The translations under genes and the position numbers were made by a program. Shown here in pieces: positions 58,594-63,891 of a stretch of 64,000 bases of DNA. Source of the DNA: an uncultured Bacteroidota bacterium. GTDB lineage: Bacteria > Bacteroidota > Bacteroidia > Bacteroidales > F082. The stretch lies in NCBI GenBank assembly GCA_903957365.1, contig CAJBPB010000295.1, forward strand, positions 1-64,000, written 5' to 3'. Each line of letters begins with the position of its first letter. The stretch's first letter is position 1. The notes under the pieces are model-generated. The model made no database searches and was not told where the DNA came from. It saw only the letters and a list, made by a program, of their open reading frames with translations.

Positions 58594-59883
58594 TTAGTTT
58601 TCTTTGTTCATTATACCCAATTTATCAAAAATCCAAAAAATCAATGACAAAACTACGCCGGCAACAGCTGCCAGCGCCATACCTTTTAGCTGTACCGAAC
58701 CAATTGTGATCGCCGCCCCGCTCACACCAGCTGCAAAAGTAATAGCTCCAAGGACCATATTGATATTTTTACTAAAATCTACTTTTTGCTCAACGTACAT
58801 TCTGAAGCCTTGCATCGCAATCACACCAAAAAGCAGTAATGTAATGCCTCCCATGACCGGATTTGGTATTGTAGTGACGGCAGCTGAAACCTTTCCGATA
58901 CATGAAAAAGCGATAGCCAATAAGGCTGCTCCGCGTATTACCCAGACCGAATAAACACGGGTGATGGCCATCACTCCAATATTTTCACCGTAGGTAGTGT
59001 TGGGAGTCGATCCTGTAAATCCAGACAAAATATTACTGATGCCATCGCCAAGTAATGACCTGTGTAATCCGGGTTTCTTCATCAGATCGCTTTCAGTGAT
59101 TTTTCCGGTGACGATCAGATGGCTGATATGTTCGGCCAAAACAACAATGCAGGCAGGCGCAATAATGATTATTGCGGTCAAATCGAAAACAGGTGCCTGA
59201 AAATGTGGTAAAGAAAACCAATCCGCATTATCGATGACTGTGGTATCGACCATTCCCATTACAAATGCAAGCAGATAGCCGGCAATCACTGCAAACAATA
59301 TCGGTATTACCTGCATAAATCCTTTGAACATAACAGAACCGAAAATTCCAATGCATAAAGTAACCATTGAAACAATAATTGTATCAATATCAATTACATA
59401 CGGCGCTACTATATTGCCGGTAGCTGTCGGCCAGGGTGCCAGTCCGGCCTGTTGAGCGGCAACGGGTGCAAGTTCCAGTCCGATAATCGCTACTACTGCT
59501 CCCATCACTGCTGGAGGCATTACAATATCAATCCAGCGAATCCCCCACTTTTTAACTACAAATGACATGAGAACAAAGAACAATCCGAAAAAAATAAAAC
59601 CGGATTGTGCATGATTAAAACTTCCATAGGTTGTTGTGATCAGTAAAACCGGTGCAATAAAGGCAAAACTTGAGCCCAGATAAGCCGGAATGCCGCCTTT
59701 GGTAATCCAGGTATATAATAAAGTGCCGATTCCATTCATCAGTAATGCAATGGCAGGATCAACACCCATTAAAACGGGCGCCAGAACGGTGCCGCCAAAC
59801 ATGGCAGTAAGGTGCTGGAAACTAAGAGGCAAGCTTTCAAGTAGTGGAAGCTTTTGATAAATACCAATGATTCTACGTGCCAT
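58594..59883 (-). CDS. uraA: Uracil permease (NCS2 uracil/xanthine family)
   Basis: A 429-residue inner-membrane transporter with about 14 helices. The N-terminus (LPLSFQHLTAMFGGTVLAPV) is typical of UraA/PyrP. The conserved acidic sites are present: CIVVLAEHISHLIVTG with the family's glutamate near 250, and STPNTTYGENIGVMAITRVY with the second glutamate near 295. It imports uracil with protons in E. coli. Here it lies 84 bases after preA on the same strand, which suggests import feeding pyrimidine reduction. No separate promoter box was seen in the gap. Confidence 0.94.
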   Translation of the reverse strand: MARRIIGIYQKLPLLESLPLSFQHLTAMFGGTVLAPVLMGVDPAIALLMNGIGTLLYTWITKGGIPAYLGSSFAFIAPVLLITTTYGSFNHAQSGFIFFGLFFVLMSFVVKKWGIRWIDIVMPPAVMGAVVAIIGLELAPVAAQQAGLAPWPTATGNIVAPYVIDIDTIIVSMVTLCIGIFGSVMFKGFMQVIPILFAVIAGYLLAFVMGMVDTTVIDNADWFSLPHFQAPVFDLTAIIIIAPACIVVLAEHISHLIVTGKITESDLMKKPGLHRSLLGDGISNILSGFTGSTPNTTYGENIGVMAITRVYSVWVIRGAALLAIAFSCIGKVSAAVTTIPNPVMGGITLLLFGVIAMQGFRMYVEQKVDFSKNINMVLGAITFAAGVSGAAITIGSVQLKGMALAAVAGVVLSLIFWIFDKLGIMNKEN

Positions 59884-59967
59884 AAATCTGTTATTTATAA
59901 ATTGAATTTGTACTTGAAAATCCCTTTTGTTTTCTTAGAAATCAGTGAAATAAAAATGTTTGATGAT

Positions 59968-61311
59968 TCAGTTCTCATCATTCTGTCTATTTTTCAAAGC
60001 ATCATTTGGATTGTAGGACGGATGCTGCAAGCCACCAGCCATTGCATCATCAAATGTTGAAGGAATGTTTCCTGCTTCGGTTCTCTGTTTCCAGGTTTCA
60101 ACCTCATTTCCGCGTTTTGTTTTTATCATGGTGATACAATGTTCAACTGGACAAACCAATGCACAAAGATTACAGCCAACGCATCGTTCAGCCAGAACTA
60201 CCGGTATTTTGTCTGTTAAGTCTTTTGGAAGCGTAATAGCCTGGTAAGCACCATCTTCACATGCTATGAAACATAAATGACAACCAATACATTTTTGCTG
60301 ATCAATGGCCGCAATGACTTCATATTTAAGGTTTAAGTTTTCCCATTCGGTAACATGACGCAAGGCTTTTCCGGTAATTTCGTCCACTGATTGAAAACCC
60401 TTTTCGTTCATATATTGTTCCAGACCGTGACTCATATTTTTAACAATGCCGAAGCCATAATGCATCACTGCTGTGCAAACCTGCACTGTGCCCGCACCCA
60501 GCAAAAAAAACTCAACAGCATCACGCCAGGTTTCAATTCCGCCGATACCAGAAATGGGAATGCCAATTTCCTTGTCCAATGCGCAGTTCTTCACCATGTT
60601 CAGGGCAATGGGTTTGATTGCTGGTCCCGAATATCCACCATTGGTGCTCATAGATCCGACAATCGGATAAGAGATAAAATTATCAATATCAATTCCGATA
60701 ATACTTTGTATGGTGTTGATCAGTGAAATGGCATCAGCACCTCCTCTTTTGGCTGCTTTTGCTGTTTCGGTAATGTCGGTGATATTAGGAGTAAGCTTCA
60801 CGATGACCGGCGTTTTAGCTACTTCCATCACCCAACTTGTAATCAGTTCAACAAGTCTGGGTTCCTGCCCGACAGCCGATCCCATGCCACGCTCGCACAT
60901 GCCGTGGGGGCATCCGAAATTCAACTCAATGCCATCCACCCCTGCGTTTTCGGCATCTTTCACTATTTGGTGCCACTCCTCACGTGTTTGAACCATGAGA
61001 GAGGCAATAATGGCATGATTAGGAAAATGTTTTTTTACCTCTTCAATGTCCCTGAGATTGTCGCTAAGTCGCCGGTCGGAAATCAACTCGATATTATTTA
61101 ATCCCATTAATCGGGTTTTGTGGTAATTCACTCCGCCATATCGACTTGAAACATTGATTGTCGGGACTCCCATCGTTTTCCAGACGGCACCGCCCCAGCC
61201 TGTGTCAAATGCTTTCATTACCTGATAACCTGTATTTGATGGTGGGCCGGATGCCAGCCAAAAAGGATTTGGGGCTTTTATTCCTGCAAAATTCACTGAG
61301 AGGTTTGCCAT
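59968..61311 (-). CDS. preA: Dihydropyrimidine dehydrogenase iron-sulfur/FMN subunit PreA
   Basis: A 447-residue enzyme subunit that interconverts uracil or thymine and their dihydro forms. The N-terminal FMN TIM barrel resembles dihydroorotate dehydrogenase: VNFAGIKAPNPFWLASGPPS, then ELNFGCPHGMCERGMG with the pyrimidine-site Cys, KLTPNITDI, and ISGIGGIETWRDAVEF. The C-terminus has two [4Fe-4S] sites, CIGCHLCFIACEDGAYQAI and CVGCNLCALVCPVEHC, as in PreA. In E. coli the NADH-oxidising partner PreT is encoded next door; none is in this window. With uraA downstream the pair suggests uracil uptake and reduction. No clear -7 box was found upstream. Confidence 0.93.
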   Translation of the reverse strand: MANLSVNFAGIKAPNPFWLASGPPSNTGYQVMKAFDTGWGGAVWKTMGVPTINVSSRYGGVNYHKTRLMGLNNIELISDRRLSDNLRDIEEVKKHFPNHAIIASLMVQTREEWHQIVKDAENAGVDGIELNFGCPHGMCERGMGSAVGQEPRLVELITSWVMEVAKTPVIVKLTPNITDITETAKAAKRGGADAISLINTIQSIIGIDIDNFISYPIVGSMSTNGGYSGPAIKPIALNMVKNCALDKEIGIPISGIGGIETWRDAVEFFLLGAGTVQVCTAVMHYGFGIVKNMSHGLEQYMNEKGFQSVDEITGKALRHVTEWENLNLKYEVIAAIDQQKCIGCHLCFIACEDGAYQAITLPKDLTDKIPVVLAERCVGCNLCALVCPVEHCITMIKTKRGNEVETWKQRTEAGNIPSTFDDAMAGGLQHPSYNPNDALKNRQNDEN

Positions 61312-61752: not shown

Positions 61753-62805
61753 TTAATTACTGATCTTTTCATTATGGCAAACCAGGACATTTTCCTTGTC
61801 TCCATGCCAAAGATGCATCCCGTTTCCCTGGCAGTCCGTATAATCTTTACATCCGGCACATTGTCCGGTTTTTGTCCATTTTCTGTCGCGGAACATCTGA
61901 AATTTCTTGTTCCATACTTCAAAAAGATTGTCGGAATAAATATTTCCTTGTATAAAACTTCGGTCTATATTAGGACAGGCAGAGATGGAACCATCAATAA
62001 GAACCGAGCCAATATTAATGCCCGCCCGGCAGAAAAATCCAGAATCACGCACCTTCGATTCGAACTTGCCAACATAACCCTCACAACTGAATTTAATGTC
62101 AATAGTTTTTAGTTTTCTGGTCCGGCTAATGAATCCGAGCATTTCAGTAAATTGCTGATCAGTTAAAATCAATTCAGGATTGTTTGCAGCTCTTCCAATC
62201 GGGATGATGGTAAACAGCCGCCAGGCTTTCACACTTTTTGAAAGTAAATAATTGTAAATCAATGGTAATTCTTCAATATTTTTTCTGTTCACACAGGTTA
62301 CCACATCAAAATTAAGGCGCGTTGAACTCCTTGCCAGCGAGATGGCATTGTCTGCCCGGGCGAAACTGTTTTTGTTGTTACGTAACCAGTTGTGACTCTC
62401 TTCAAGGCCGTCGAGACTGATTGTTAACGCCCCCATGCCCGCATTGAGTAATGCATTGTGTTTTTCCTGGTCGTACAGATAGCCATTGGTAACCATACTC
62501 CAGCGAGCCCCGTGTTTTCTGATTTCCCGGCCACATTGTTCAATATCCTTGCGCATCAGCGGCTCACCACCAGTGAGCACTACCATAAAATTATCCGATT
62601 TGGGTTCAATCGTATCTAAAGCTGAAAGAAAATCCTCCAGCGGCATGTCATCAGATGAGCTGTTTTTGGAACAATCACTTCCGCAATGCAGACAATTGAG
62701 GTTACAGCGCATCGTACATTCCCAAAAGAGATAATTCAGTTCATGAATATTTGCTTCATTGTTTTTGAAACGCCGGAAAAGTTTGTTTTTGAAATATTCG
62801 AACAT
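61753..62805 (-). CDS. Radical SAM/SPASM enzyme of the rSAM/lipoprotein system
   Basis: A 350-residue radical SAM enzyme. The [4Fe-4S]-SAM site is CNLNCLHC (Cys34, Cys38, Cys41), followed by VVLTGGEPLMRKD near 76-88. A C-terminal SPASM-type domain for extra clusters is shown by FFCRAG near 260, GSISACPN near 278, CAGCKDYTDC near 317-326 and VLVCH near 344. SPASM enzymes typically modify peptides or proteins. Its ATG directly abuts the stop of a small lipoprotein gene (TAA then ATG), so they are translationally coupled. From memory, this matches the Bacteroidota family TIGR04133, found only beside such a lipoprotein. The chemistry and substrate are not known. Confidence 0.88.
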   Translation of the reverse strand: MFEYFKNKLFRRFKNNEANIHELNYLFWECTMRCNLNCLHCGSDCSKNSSSDDMPLEDFLSALDTIEPKSDNFMVVLTGGEPLMRKDIEQCGREIRKHGARWSMVTNGYLYDQEKHNALLNAGMGALTISLDGLEESHNWLRNNKNSFARADNAISLARSSTRLNFDVVTCVNRKNIEELPLIYNYLLSKSVKAWRLFTIIPIGRAANNPELILTDQQFTEMLGFISRTRKLKTIDIKFSCEGYVGKFESKVRDSGFFCRAGINIGSVLIDGSISACPNIDRSFIQGNIYSDNLFEVWNKKFQMFRDRKWTKTGQCAGCKDYTDCQGNGMHLWHGDKENVLVCHNEKISN

Positions 62806-63171
62806 TTATTCCCGATCCAGTGCTATTTCAAAAAAAATAGTGTAGTTCTCAGGATCGAGCACAGTGTCTCTGGTCATAAAAGCCCCATTCTGACCACCAT
62901 CCTCATCTTCAAAAAGTATGGGGTAACTGGTGGCGATGTCGGTATAAAAGGAAAAAACACCCCTATCATCCGTAAACTCATACTGATCAGTTTCAGTAAG
63001 CGAAACCCTGATTCCTTGAATTGGATCTCCAGTCGCTCTGGCTTTCACGACACCTTCGATATACATATCATATTTCATGTCCTGTGGCGTGCCATAACAG
63101 GCCTGAAAGACAAAAACCATGGATGTGACACTTAATCCACGGAGCAAATTTCTGATCCAATTGCTTATCAT
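62806..63171 (-). CDS. Radical SAM-associated lipoprotein (rSAM/lipoprotein system)
   Basis: A 121-residue lipoprotein. The signal is about 1-24 with lipobox FQAC; Cys25 begins the mature N-terminus CYGTPQDMKYDMYIEG. The rest is a carboxypeptidase-regulatory-like beta sandwich: GVVKARATGDPIQGIRVSL, then YEFTDDRGVFSFYTD and FFEIALDRE at the end. From memory, small lipoproteins with a CYG-type N-terminus next to this radical SAM family form TIGR04134. It is the likely substrate or partner of the enzyme just downstream. A TATCTTTA box lies 20 bases upstream, so this gene leads the two-gene operon. Confidence 0.86.
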   Translation of the reverse strand: MISNWIRNLLRGLSVTSMVFVFQACYGTPQDMKYDMYIEGVVKARATGDPIQGIRVSLTETDQYEFTDDRGVFSFYTDIATSYPILFEDEDGGQNGAFMTRDTVLDPENYTIFFEIALDRE

Positions 63172-63255: not shown

Positions 63256-63891
63256 CTATTTTTTGAGTTGAAATACCTTTTTGTTCTTTGATTTGCATGC
63301 TTTTGTCATGGCTTTTTTCAACCAGTCGTATTTTGGATTTGCAATACTGTCAAGTATTTTCTTGCATGTGTCGAAATTTCCCAGATTGCGGTGTAATTCA
63401 GCAATTATGATTTTTTCGTCATCATCACCGCTGTTTAACAAACTGATTAGCTTATTGATATTGTCAGACCAGAGCTGGTTTTCGTTTTCGTAAGCCGGCA
63501 GTTCCTCTTTAAAACGAATACTGTCATTCATTTTCCACCAGATTCTTTTTCGGATGTATATTTCTTGTTTGATTGTTCTTGGCAGATGAAATTCGAAAGC
63601 CAGGAAATAATCATTTAGTGTCAGAAAATCAGCATTGAATGCTTCTTCCCATTCCTTATTGATTTTTTCACCCCAATAATAAGATCCAATTTCATTGGTT
63701 TTATCGAGCCAGAAAATGGTGGTGCATTCGAAGCATTTTGTGATGATCGGAAACTCGGGTAGCATACGGGCGAAATATCGACCATCCGAAAAGAAATCTG
63801 CTCCAAAAGTGTTACCGCTCATCAAACTGTATTTTGAATAAAGTGTATCACACAATGGGCATCGGTAAATGTAATTTGGTCCGGGTAGCAT
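63256..63891 (-). CDS. Zinc-ribbon-like protein with helical C-terminus, unknown function
   Basis: A 211-residue protein without a signal peptide. Two CxxC pairs, YRCPLCDTLY near 9-18 and TKCFECTTIFW near 51-61, should bind zinc as a split ribbon. The middle is rich in Trp, Tyr and acidic residues. The C-terminal 80 residues are helical, with a TPR-like feel: EKIIIAELHRNLGNFDTCKK, then ILDSIANPKYDWLKKAM. The C-terminus is lysine-rich. The family is not recognised. Whether it belongs to the radical SAM locus is unclear: it has its own exact -7 box, and the lipoprotein gene starts 84 bases after its stop. Confidence 0.72.
   Translation of the reverse strand: MLPGPNYIYRCPLCDTLYSKYSLMSGNTFGADFFSDGRYFARMLPEFPIITKCFECTTIFWLDKTNEIGSYYWGEKINKEWEEAFNADFLTLNDYFLAFEFHLPRTIKQEIYIRKRIWWKMNDSIRFKEELPAYENENQLWSDNINKLISLLNSGDDDEKIIIAELHRNLGNFDTCKKILDSIANPKYDWLKKAMTKACKSKNKKVFQLKK

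What the first reader, a model, noticed from the sequence alone, without database searches (positions are those of the whole stretch)
61753..63171. Radical SAM/SPASM enzyme translationally coupled to a CYGTP lipoprotein
Seen: TAA of the lipoprotein abuts ATG of the enzyme; the enzyme has CxxxCxxC plus SPASM-type cysteines; the lipoprotein is only 121 residues and begins CYGTP after the lipobox. Known, from memory: this pairing is catalogued as an rSAM/lipoprotein system in Bacteroidota (TIGR04133/TIGR04134), with no defined chemistry. Inference: the enzyme modifies the lipoprotein, probably in the cytoplasm before export, which would make a post-translationally modified surface lipoprotein. 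This is the best candidate in the window for a little-described system.
Basis: partly seen in the sequence, partly recalled or inferred. Interest (0 to 1): 0.82.

Follow-up and report, generated by a model that had tools for sequence, protein, structure and literature searches.

The report
Lipoprotein-modifying radical enzyme, YGxP targets
A bacterium carries a two-gene unit in which a radical enzyme sits directly behind a small membrane-anchored protein; nearly all such partner proteins in relatives, whatever their shape, carry a short Tyr-Gly motif, the same motif at which a known enzyme splices a tyrosine piece out of a protein backbone, so an enzyme of unknown chemistry now has a concrete, testable reaction.

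Summary
The enzyme (61753-62805, -) is TIGR04133 (487.5 bits, cut-off 425); the lipoprotein (62806-63171, -) is a sub-threshold TIGR04134 match (31.7 vs 39.8); stop and start codons abut. TIGR04133 is over cut-off in 86 of 393 sampled genomes of the order.
New here: the partners are united by a motif, not a fold. Of 161 nearest upstream lipobox genes 157 carry Tyr-Gly and 138 Y-G-x-P (shuffled: mean 2.7). With the motif masked, 113 form one cluster; the other 48 fall into 35, from coiled coils to mature peptides of about 22 residues; a few partners lack the lipid Cys but keep YG. In a 37-row tree TIGR04133 groups (100/97) with TIGR04103, whose Nostoc cluster has a precursor ending LYGLPPELF. 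PlpXY, a published splicease with the same cluster architecture, excises tyramine from XYG.
[quoted passage not shown] in the window that residue is the lipid-bearing Cys25. The chemistry is inferred. A 2022 splicease survey that I could not read may already cover this family.

The parts
61753..62805 (-). TIGR04133 family radical SAM/SPASM enzyme, 350 aa
   Evidence: NCBIfam TIGR04133 487.5 bits vs cut-off 425; Pfam Radical_SAM and SPASM; AF2 model pLDDT 92.2; nearest solved folds SuiB 5v1s Z 26.1, 5why (thioether enzyme) Z 26.0, anSME 4k38 Z 25.9
62680..62706 (-). C34-x3-C38-x2-C41-G42: radical SAM cluster motif; G42 is found in 9 of 9 TIGR04133 rows, 9 of 9 other YG-side rows, 1 of 5 f19 rows and 0 of 14 outgroup rows
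61777..62031 (-). SPASM domain cysteines C259 to C343; at 329, where the related enzymes shown have Cys in or near this column, the window has Gly
62806..63171 (-). partner lipoprotein, 121 aa, putative substrate; TAA abuts the enzyme's ATG
   Evidence: TIGR04134 31.7 bits, below cut-off 39.8
63100..63171 (-). signal peptide, residues 1-24, ending FQA; its h/c region (12-24) is more conserved (2.89 bits per column) than the folded domain (2.13)
   Evidence: 32 CYG-type partners aligned
63085..63099 (-). C25-Y26-G27-T28-P29: lipidation Cys followed directly by the YGxP motif, the proposed modification site
   Evidence: sequence; YG in 157 and YGxP in 138 of 161 nearest partners; in the genome the only one of 18 CYGxP pattern matches that lies behind a signal peptide in frame, judged by eye
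62818..63069 (-). transthyretin/CnaB-like beta-sandwich, residues 35-118
   Evidence: AF2 model pLDDT 86.8 and Foldseek; weak Pfam CarboxypepD_reg, below cut-off

Best explanation
The pair is a radical-SAM protein-splicing system that acts on an exported lipoprotein. [quoted passage not shown] The protein is then exported, lipidated and cleaved as usual. In the window X is Cys25, the residue that is lipidated; the Ala24-Cys25 bond and the thiol are not touched by the reaction, so lipidation should still be possible, giving a lipid-bearing N-terminal residue with a ketoamide. In other family members X is Glu, Met, Lys, Val and others, mostly in a linker and in some scaffolds repeated along the chain. 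Shown by sequence: pairing, motif, clade. Inferred: that the lipoprotein is the substrate, the reaction, its place and timing, and any role (a tethered protease inhibitor is one possibility where X is not Cys).
For: Motif: of 161 nearest upstream lipobox genes 157 have YG and 138 YGxP; mature-sequence shuffles give means of 52 and 2.7, maxima 68 and 8; YGxP density is 8.95 per 1000 aa in partners against 0.16 in 636 non-lipobox neighbours. With the motif masked, 113 partners link into one cluster and the other 48 into 35 further clusters, 29 of them singletons; the minimal-scaffold label needs 9 changes on the enzyme tree. YG persists where the lipid Cys is absent (L155, L007) or where the partner looks secreted and has no lipobox Cys (L075, L085, L095). 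Clade: TIGR04133 groups with TIGR04103, TIGR03913, L008, Agathobacter, Tropicibacter and f19 enzymes, 100/97, apart from NirJ2-like, MftC, PqqE and TIGR04053, and shares G42 with the first five. YG near those relatives: Nostoc precursor ...LYGLPPELF; 4 of 8 annotated DUF1843 peptides and 4 more in L013 and L015 that a YG filter picked; six KYGYP beside the L008 enzyme and a 35-aa ORF with MYG before the Agathobacter enzyme, both also found with a YG filter. Literature passages: PlpXY excises tyramine from XYG, natural sites MYG and LYG; XYG shown by mutational analysis.
Against: No experiment. PlpX itself was not available: the link to spliceases runs through TIGR04103 by cluster architecture. 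By profile score the window enzyme is closer to NirJ2 (130.8 bits) and AhbD (124.1) than to TIGR04103 (120.9, cut-off 725); only the tree puts it with TIGR04103, on a long branch (1.81). It lacks one SPASM Cys. No RRE partner like PlpY and no Nif11/NHLP leader: besides YG lipoproteins no gene family of 60 aa or more recurs in more than 14 of 188 loci within 2.5 kb. The f19 enzymes inside the same clade have no clear YG partner next to them, so YG substrates are not shown for the whole clade. Half of the annotated DUF1843 peptides have YM or YA. Eight of 182 loci lack a YG partner; the nearest partner in L137 has CYA. The Pro at +2 after Gly is not universal in spliceotides: the tag AVAAGYGVVFPG lacks it, and the LYGLPI tags were not accepted at the FtsZ sites tried.
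Confidence: 0.55

Rival explanations
1. The enzyme modifies the YGxP site by another radical reaction on Tyr, for example a cyclophane or ether cross-link from the Tyr ring to a nearby residue (triceptide-like), or cleavage of the Tyr side chain, without splicing.
For: Many SPASM enzymes cross-link aromatic residues (recalled); the clade assignment alone does not fix the reaction; f19 enzymes in the clade have no clear YG partner, so chemistry or substrate may have diverged.
Against: A Tyr-X2-X3 cyclophane needs a suitable beta-carbon at X3 (recalled), but the residue after YG varies widely, including Pro (14) and Gly (2) of 225 YG sites, while YG is kept in 157 of 161; Y-G with variable flanks is what PlpXY uses.
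Confidence: 0.22
2. Thioether (sactipeptide or ranthipeptide) chemistry between the Cys of CYGTP and a backbone or side-chain carbon.
For: The window motif is CYGTP, and a thioether-forming enzyme (5why) is among the nearest solved folds.
Against: Cys precedes the first YG in only 51 of 157 YG partners; minimal partners such as L093 have only the lipobox Cys; L155, L007 and the AQYG proteins lack it.
Confidence: 0.05
3. YGxP is a docking or sorting tag for the lipoprotein, and the enzyme acts on something else (small molecule, lipid or another protein).
For: By profile score the window enzyme's closest families after TIGR04133 are the haem-pathway enzymes NirJ2 and AhbD; no modification has been measured.
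Against: The pair is tightly linked with no third recurrent gene within 2.5 kb; scaffolds shrink to a lipid-anchored peptide with little left but YGxP; the related TIGR04103 enzyme of Nostoc has the same motif in an annotated RiPP precursor.
Confidence: 0.15
4. The two genes are neighbours by descent only, with no functional link.
For: Eight of 182 uncut loci lack a recognisable YG partner.
Against: 174 of 182 have one (at least one a chance hit), upstream in most and downstream or convergent in some, and partners without detectable similarity to each other still carry the motif.
Confidence: 0.03

Closest known systems
NCBIfam TIGR04133 / TIGR04134, radical SAM/SPASM protein with radical SAM-associated putative lipoprotein
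   Same: Enzyme scores over the TIGR04133 cut-off; gene order, lipobox, CYGTP start; 29 of 32 aligned CYG-type partners match TIGR04134 at E 1e-3 or better.
   Different: The window lipoprotein is below the TIGR04134 cut-off. The families name no chemistry. The coiled-coil and minimal partners show that the common feature is YG, not one fold.
Spliceotide systems: PlpXY of Pleurocapsa sp. PCC 7319, and TIGR04103 (nif11-class maturase 3) of Nostoc sp. C057
   Same: rSAM/SPASM enzyme; XYG site, XYGxP in the Nostoc precursor; joint clade of TIGR04133 and TIGR04103 in the tree.
   Different: Far below the TIGR04103 cut-off; no RRE partner seen; substrate candidate is an exported lipoprotein with a signal peptide instead of a Nif11/NHLP leader; one SPASM Cys missing. 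PlpX itself was not compared.
TIGR03913 GDL-motif peptide systems (DUF1843)
   Same: Same clade; short peptides with XYG near the N-terminus in 4 of 8 annotated copies, and in four more found by a YG filter.
   Different: Short peptides without signal peptide; the other annotated copies have YM or YA; no chemistry found in any call.

Membership tests
TIGR04133 | Whole-protein score at or over 425 bits | tested here: met
   487.5 bits, profile 8-349 of 350
TIGR04134 | Whole-protein score at or over 39.8 bits | tested here: not met
   31.7 bits, E 1.4e-07
rSAM/lipoprotein pairing | Lipobox protein encoded next to the enzyme | tested here: met
   gap 0 in the window; 161 of 188 distinct enzymes have an upstream lipobox ORF by a hand-made rule
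Splicease (PlpX type) | rSAM CX3CX2C plus SPASM domain | tested here: met
Splicease (PlpX type) | XYG site in the partner | tested here: met
   C25-Y26-G27 in the window; YG in 157 of 161 nearest partners
Splicease (PlpX type) | Sequence clade with TIGR04103 | tested here: met
   100/97 in a 37-row tree; PlpX itself not in the tree, and profile scores rank NirJ2 and AhbD slightly higher
TIGR04103 | Score at or over 725 bits | tested here: not met
   120.9 bits
Splicease (PlpX type) | RRE partner protein (PlpY) | tested here: inconclusive
   no recurrent small gene of 60 aa or more within 2.5 kb; shorter ORFs and genes elsewhere not tested
Splicease (PlpX type) | Nif11 or NHLP leader on the substrate | tested here: not met
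   NCBIfam lists only TIGR04134 and a chance match at E 0.072 for the lipoprotein
Splicease (PlpX type) | Tyramine excision, loss of C8H9NO | not testable with these tools
   needs mass spectrometry
Sactipeptide or ranthipeptide maturase | Conserved donor Cys at the core site | tested here: not met
   Cys before the first YG in 51 of 157; partners without the Cys, L155 and L007
Triceptide (cyclophane) maturase | Aromatic-X2-X3 with a cross-linkable X3 (recalled) | tested here: inconclusive
   X3 varies, Pro 14 and Gly 2 of 225 sites

The most novel reading that the evidence does not exclude
[quoted passage not shown] Partner scaffolds have been swapped and reduced many times around the same splice site, so the system is a modular way to place a ketoamide electrophile on the cell envelope.
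Probability: 0.43. Interest if true: 0.87.

Novelty: new variant of a known kind. Interest (0 to 1): 0.72.

Why it matters
A catalogued enzyme family without a named reaction gains a specific, cheap test: a mass shift of about -135.07 Da. If right, protein splicing by radical SAM enzymes is also an envelope-protein modification in Bacteroidota, with records labelled Parabacteroides, Phocaeicola, Alistipes and Prevotella and in Treponema and Fibrobacter records, and not only a peptide natural-product reaction. Alpha-ketoamides are known as reversible covalent protease inhibitors (abstracts), and published spliceotides are reported to inhibit proteases, so a surface-anchored form could matter in contact with hosts or other cells (speculation). 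The minimal partners of about 22 mature residues would also be compact splice substrates for protein engineering.

Tried and rejected
Rejected: that CYGTP as a whole defines the system (C and T vary across the family; YG rarely does). Rejected: thioether chemistry, as the Cys is dispensable across the family. Rejected: one shared fold of all partners; with the motif masked 113 of 161 link together and 48 do not. A search for a second CYGxP lipoprotein in the window's genome gave 18 DNA matches against 21 for the reversed control pattern; by eye only the window gene had a signal peptide in frame. TIGR04134 in the own genome gave the window gene and two weak hits inside long ORFs. Neighbour clustering found no third recurrent gene. 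The 211-aa ORF upstream (63256-63891) had no NCBIfam match and one weak Pfam hit. Pfam on the L008 six-repeat protein gave no family. Structure searches did not discriminate among SPASM chemistries.

Twelve (L131-L142) are below the TIGR04133 cut-off; the named loci were not scored with that model. The 80 named loci are the best 80 of 541 relatives, themselves from a capped list. The lipobox rule is a hand-made heuristic. In one search the partner choice preferred YG-bearing candidates; choosing the nearest alone gives the same counts. One counted YGxP partner is a chance hit (L212, an oxidoreductase-like ORF). Six loci cut by a contig edge (L207, L213, L120, L071, L140, L210) were left out of the 182; L207 has a downstream YG lipoprotein. 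Sixteen partners were added by eye: six upstream ones that the rule missed and ten others; one of the ten, L204, lies upstream of the enzyme's matched part but inside an over-long ORF. The 32 CYG-type partners of alignment A2 were picked from 47 that I selected for having Cys-Tyr-Gly after the lipobox, so the identity of C25, Y26 and G27 there is by construction; only the other columns are informative. The YG ORFs near L008, Agathobacter, L013 and L015 came from filters for YG.

Full report
What is there. On the - strand two ORFs abut: a 121-aa protein (62806-63171) with an N-terminal hydrophobic segment ending FQA-C, and a 350-aa radical SAM/SPASM enzyme (61753-62805). The TAA of the first is followed at once by the ATG of the second. 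The enzyme scores 487.5 bits to TIGR04133 (cut-off 425); the small protein 31.7 bits to TIGR04134 (cut-off 39.8, not met). Pfam gives Radical_SAM and SPASM for the enzyme and weak, sub-threshold CarboxypepD_reg for the lipoprotein. AlphaFold2 gives a confident enzyme (mean pLDDT 92.2) nearest to the SPASM enzymes SuiB (5v1s), 5why (titled as a thioether enzyme of sactipeptide biosynthesis) and anSME (4k38), Z 26.1, 26.0 and 25.9, and a lipoprotein with an N-terminal helix (2-26), a short linker and a transthyretin/CnaB-like beta-sandwich (35-118; mean pLDDT 86.8).

Distribution. TIGR04133 over cut-off is in 3 of 395 genomes sampled across the phylum and 86 of 393 sampled in the order, the window's own genome included in both; the 14 control genomes have none over cut-off. 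Some genomes have two or three copies. The named relatives are mostly uncultured bins labelled Bacteroidales or families that I count to it, with Fibrobacter, Spirochaetaceae and one Bacillales label (bin labels not checked). Plasmid records include Parabacteroides distasonis, Phocaeicola massiliensis and Treponema saccharophilum, the last with both genes annotated.

The partners. Of 188 distinct enzymes, 161 have a lipobox ORF upstream on the same strand. Of these, 157 carry Tyr-Gly and 138 Y-G-x-P in the mature part; choosing simply the nearest gene gives the same numbers. Shuffling the mature parts 200 times gives means of 52 (YG) and 2.7 (YGxP) of 161, maxima 68 and 8. YGxP occurs 8.95 times per 1000 residues in partners and 0.16 times in 636 non-lipobox neighbours. 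Counting any upstream candidate, 158 of the 161 have YG. Of the 27 enzymes without an upstream lipobox ORF, 6 have an upstream YG protein that the rule missed or that lacks the Cys (L192, L080, L068, L214, L155, L007), 7 a YG lipoprotein downstream, convergent or, in L204, inside an over-long enzyme ORF, 3 a downstream protein with a signal-like segment and AQYGAP or AQYGS without a lipobox Cys, 6 are cut by a contig edge, and 5 have none. With three whose upstream ORF lacks YG (L074, L079, L156) that makes 174 with and 8 without a YG partner of 182 uncut loci. At least one counted partner is a chance hit (L212).

What varies and what does not. With the motif masked the 161 partners fall into 36 clusters: one of 113 (beta-type by eye), one of 9 (coiled-coil type by eye, many with repeated YGSP), five pairs and 29 singletons, among them lipid-anchored peptides whose whole mature part is 22-39 residues. 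On a tree of 157 enzymes the CYG arrangement changes 3 times and the minimal scaffold 9 times. In 32 CYG-type partners, which were chosen for having CYG, A24 is identical in all and F22 and Q23 in 28 and 27; this end of the signal peptide is more conserved than the folded domain, which fits recognition by the enzyme. The residue before Tyr varies (Cys 52, Glu 52, Met 27, Lys 24, Val 24 of 225 sites), as does the one after Gly (Thr 81, Val 31, Ser 30, Pro 14, Gly 2). Among 237 other lipobox ORFs in these loci 51 have YGxP, many of them evident further partners. One nearest partner has CYA (L137). Apart from YG lipoproteins no gene family recurs in more than 14 of 188 loci.

Relatives of the enzyme. 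By profile score the window enzyme's next families are NirJ2 (130.8), AhbD (124.1) and TIGR04103 (120.9). A 37-row tree decides between them: it separates TIGR04133, TIGR04103, TIGR03913, Tropicibacter, Agathobacter, L008 and f19 enzymes (f19 is a family label of the genome search) from NirJ2-like, MftC, PqqE and TIGR04053 enzymes with support 100/97. YG near these relatives: a Nif11-leader precursor ending SIALYGLPPELF beside the Nostoc TIGR04103 enzyme (853.1 bits) and a 71-aa protein; DUF1843 peptides, 4 of 8 annotated ones with YG and the rest with YM or YA, and 4 more with YG in L013 and L015 picked by a YG filter; a 214-aa protein with six KYGYP repeats 35 bases behind the L008 enzyme (same filter); and a 35-aa ORF with VMYGTGVRM before the Agathobacter enzyme (same kind of filter). 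Gly42, after the third cluster Cys, is in all 18 TIGR04133 and YG-side rows, 1 of 5 f19 rows and 0 of 14 outgroup rows. The seven f19 loci that I looked at show no clear YG partner beside the enzyme; L009 and L012 have a 44-47-aa ORF with YGRP 751 bases downstream that I take for chance. They are the main result against a clade-wide rule.

Known chemistry. [quoted passage not shown] natural sites are MYG and LYG. Tags tried there include PIRPLYGLPI and PIRPGYGLPI, both Y-G-x-P, and AVAAGYGVVFPG, which is not; in FtsZ only two of the placements, both with PIRPGYGLPI, were accepted. From PMC11002830 passages: PlpX is a SPASM enzyme of IPR026482 with an RRE protein PlpY and Nif11 or nitrile-hydratase type precursors, the architecture of the Nostoc cluster. 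From PMC10373908 (passage and one section): XYG was shown by mutational analysis, and Scott et al. 2022 found the reaction across bacteria with protease-inhibiting products. That IPR026482 corresponds to TIGR04103 is recalled.

Conclusion. The joint evidence makes tyramine excision at XYG the most likely reaction (0.55), acting on the pre-lipoprotein before export. In the window X is Cys25. The reaction leaves the Ala24-Cys25 bond and the thiol intact, so lipidation and signal cleavage remain possible (inference). Differences from PlpXY are real: no RRE partner seen, no RiPP leader, a missing SPASM Cys, a long branch. So this is not filed as TIGR04103 or as a proven splicease; it is a TIGR04133 system that probably works like one.

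Novelty. No held paper mentions TIGR04133, TIGR04134 or the family names. Paper searches on spliceases, lipoproteins and Bacteroidota gave listings in which no title or abstract start makes this claim; I read passages or sections only. The library lacks the two key splicease papers (Morinaka 2018, Scott 2022) and Haft and Basu 2011. The title of Scott et al. speaks of peptides and proteins, so this family may already be there; I put that at about one in three.

Noticed in passing
L008:3003-3647: A 214-aa protein with six KYGYP repeats lies 35 bases behind a TIGR03913/TIGR04103-like radical SAM enzyme in a genome of the same order; no Pfam family. It looks like a multi-site substrate of a related enzyme.
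   Followed up: partly
L226:3839-3946 (+): 35-aa ORF ending VMYGTGVRM, not in the record's annotation, just before an Agathobacter rectalis radical SAM enzyme of the same clade; MYG is a natural splicease site.
   Followed up: no
L010, L011, L012, L016: f19 enzymes of the clade have no clear YG partner; in these four loci a small protein (99-157 aa) with MYLVI(I/V)DKLL lies upstream instead. Its role is unknown.
   Followed up: partly
L203, L188, L219, L221, L177, L181: Loci with several YGxP lipoproteins beside one TIGR04133 enzyme, including Fibrobacter succinogenes bins with low-complexity partners.
   Followed up: partly
L101 and L111 (L144 is probably the same contig as L101): Two TIGR04133-type enzymes in tandem, each behind its own lipoprotein (CAKYGDIYD type and CYGTP type).
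   Followed up: no
L137: Nearest partner has CYA in place of CYG, while a second ORF further upstream keeps CYGSP: a possible decayed or altered site.
   Followed up: no
window 63256-63891 (-): 211-aa ORF directly upstream of the lipoprotein on the same strand, no NCBIfam match, weak zinc-ribbon hit.
   Followed up: no
window 58594-61311 (-): PreA dihydropyrimidine dehydrogenase subunit next to a uracil permease: an ordinary pyrimidine pair downstream of the enzyme.
   Followed up: no
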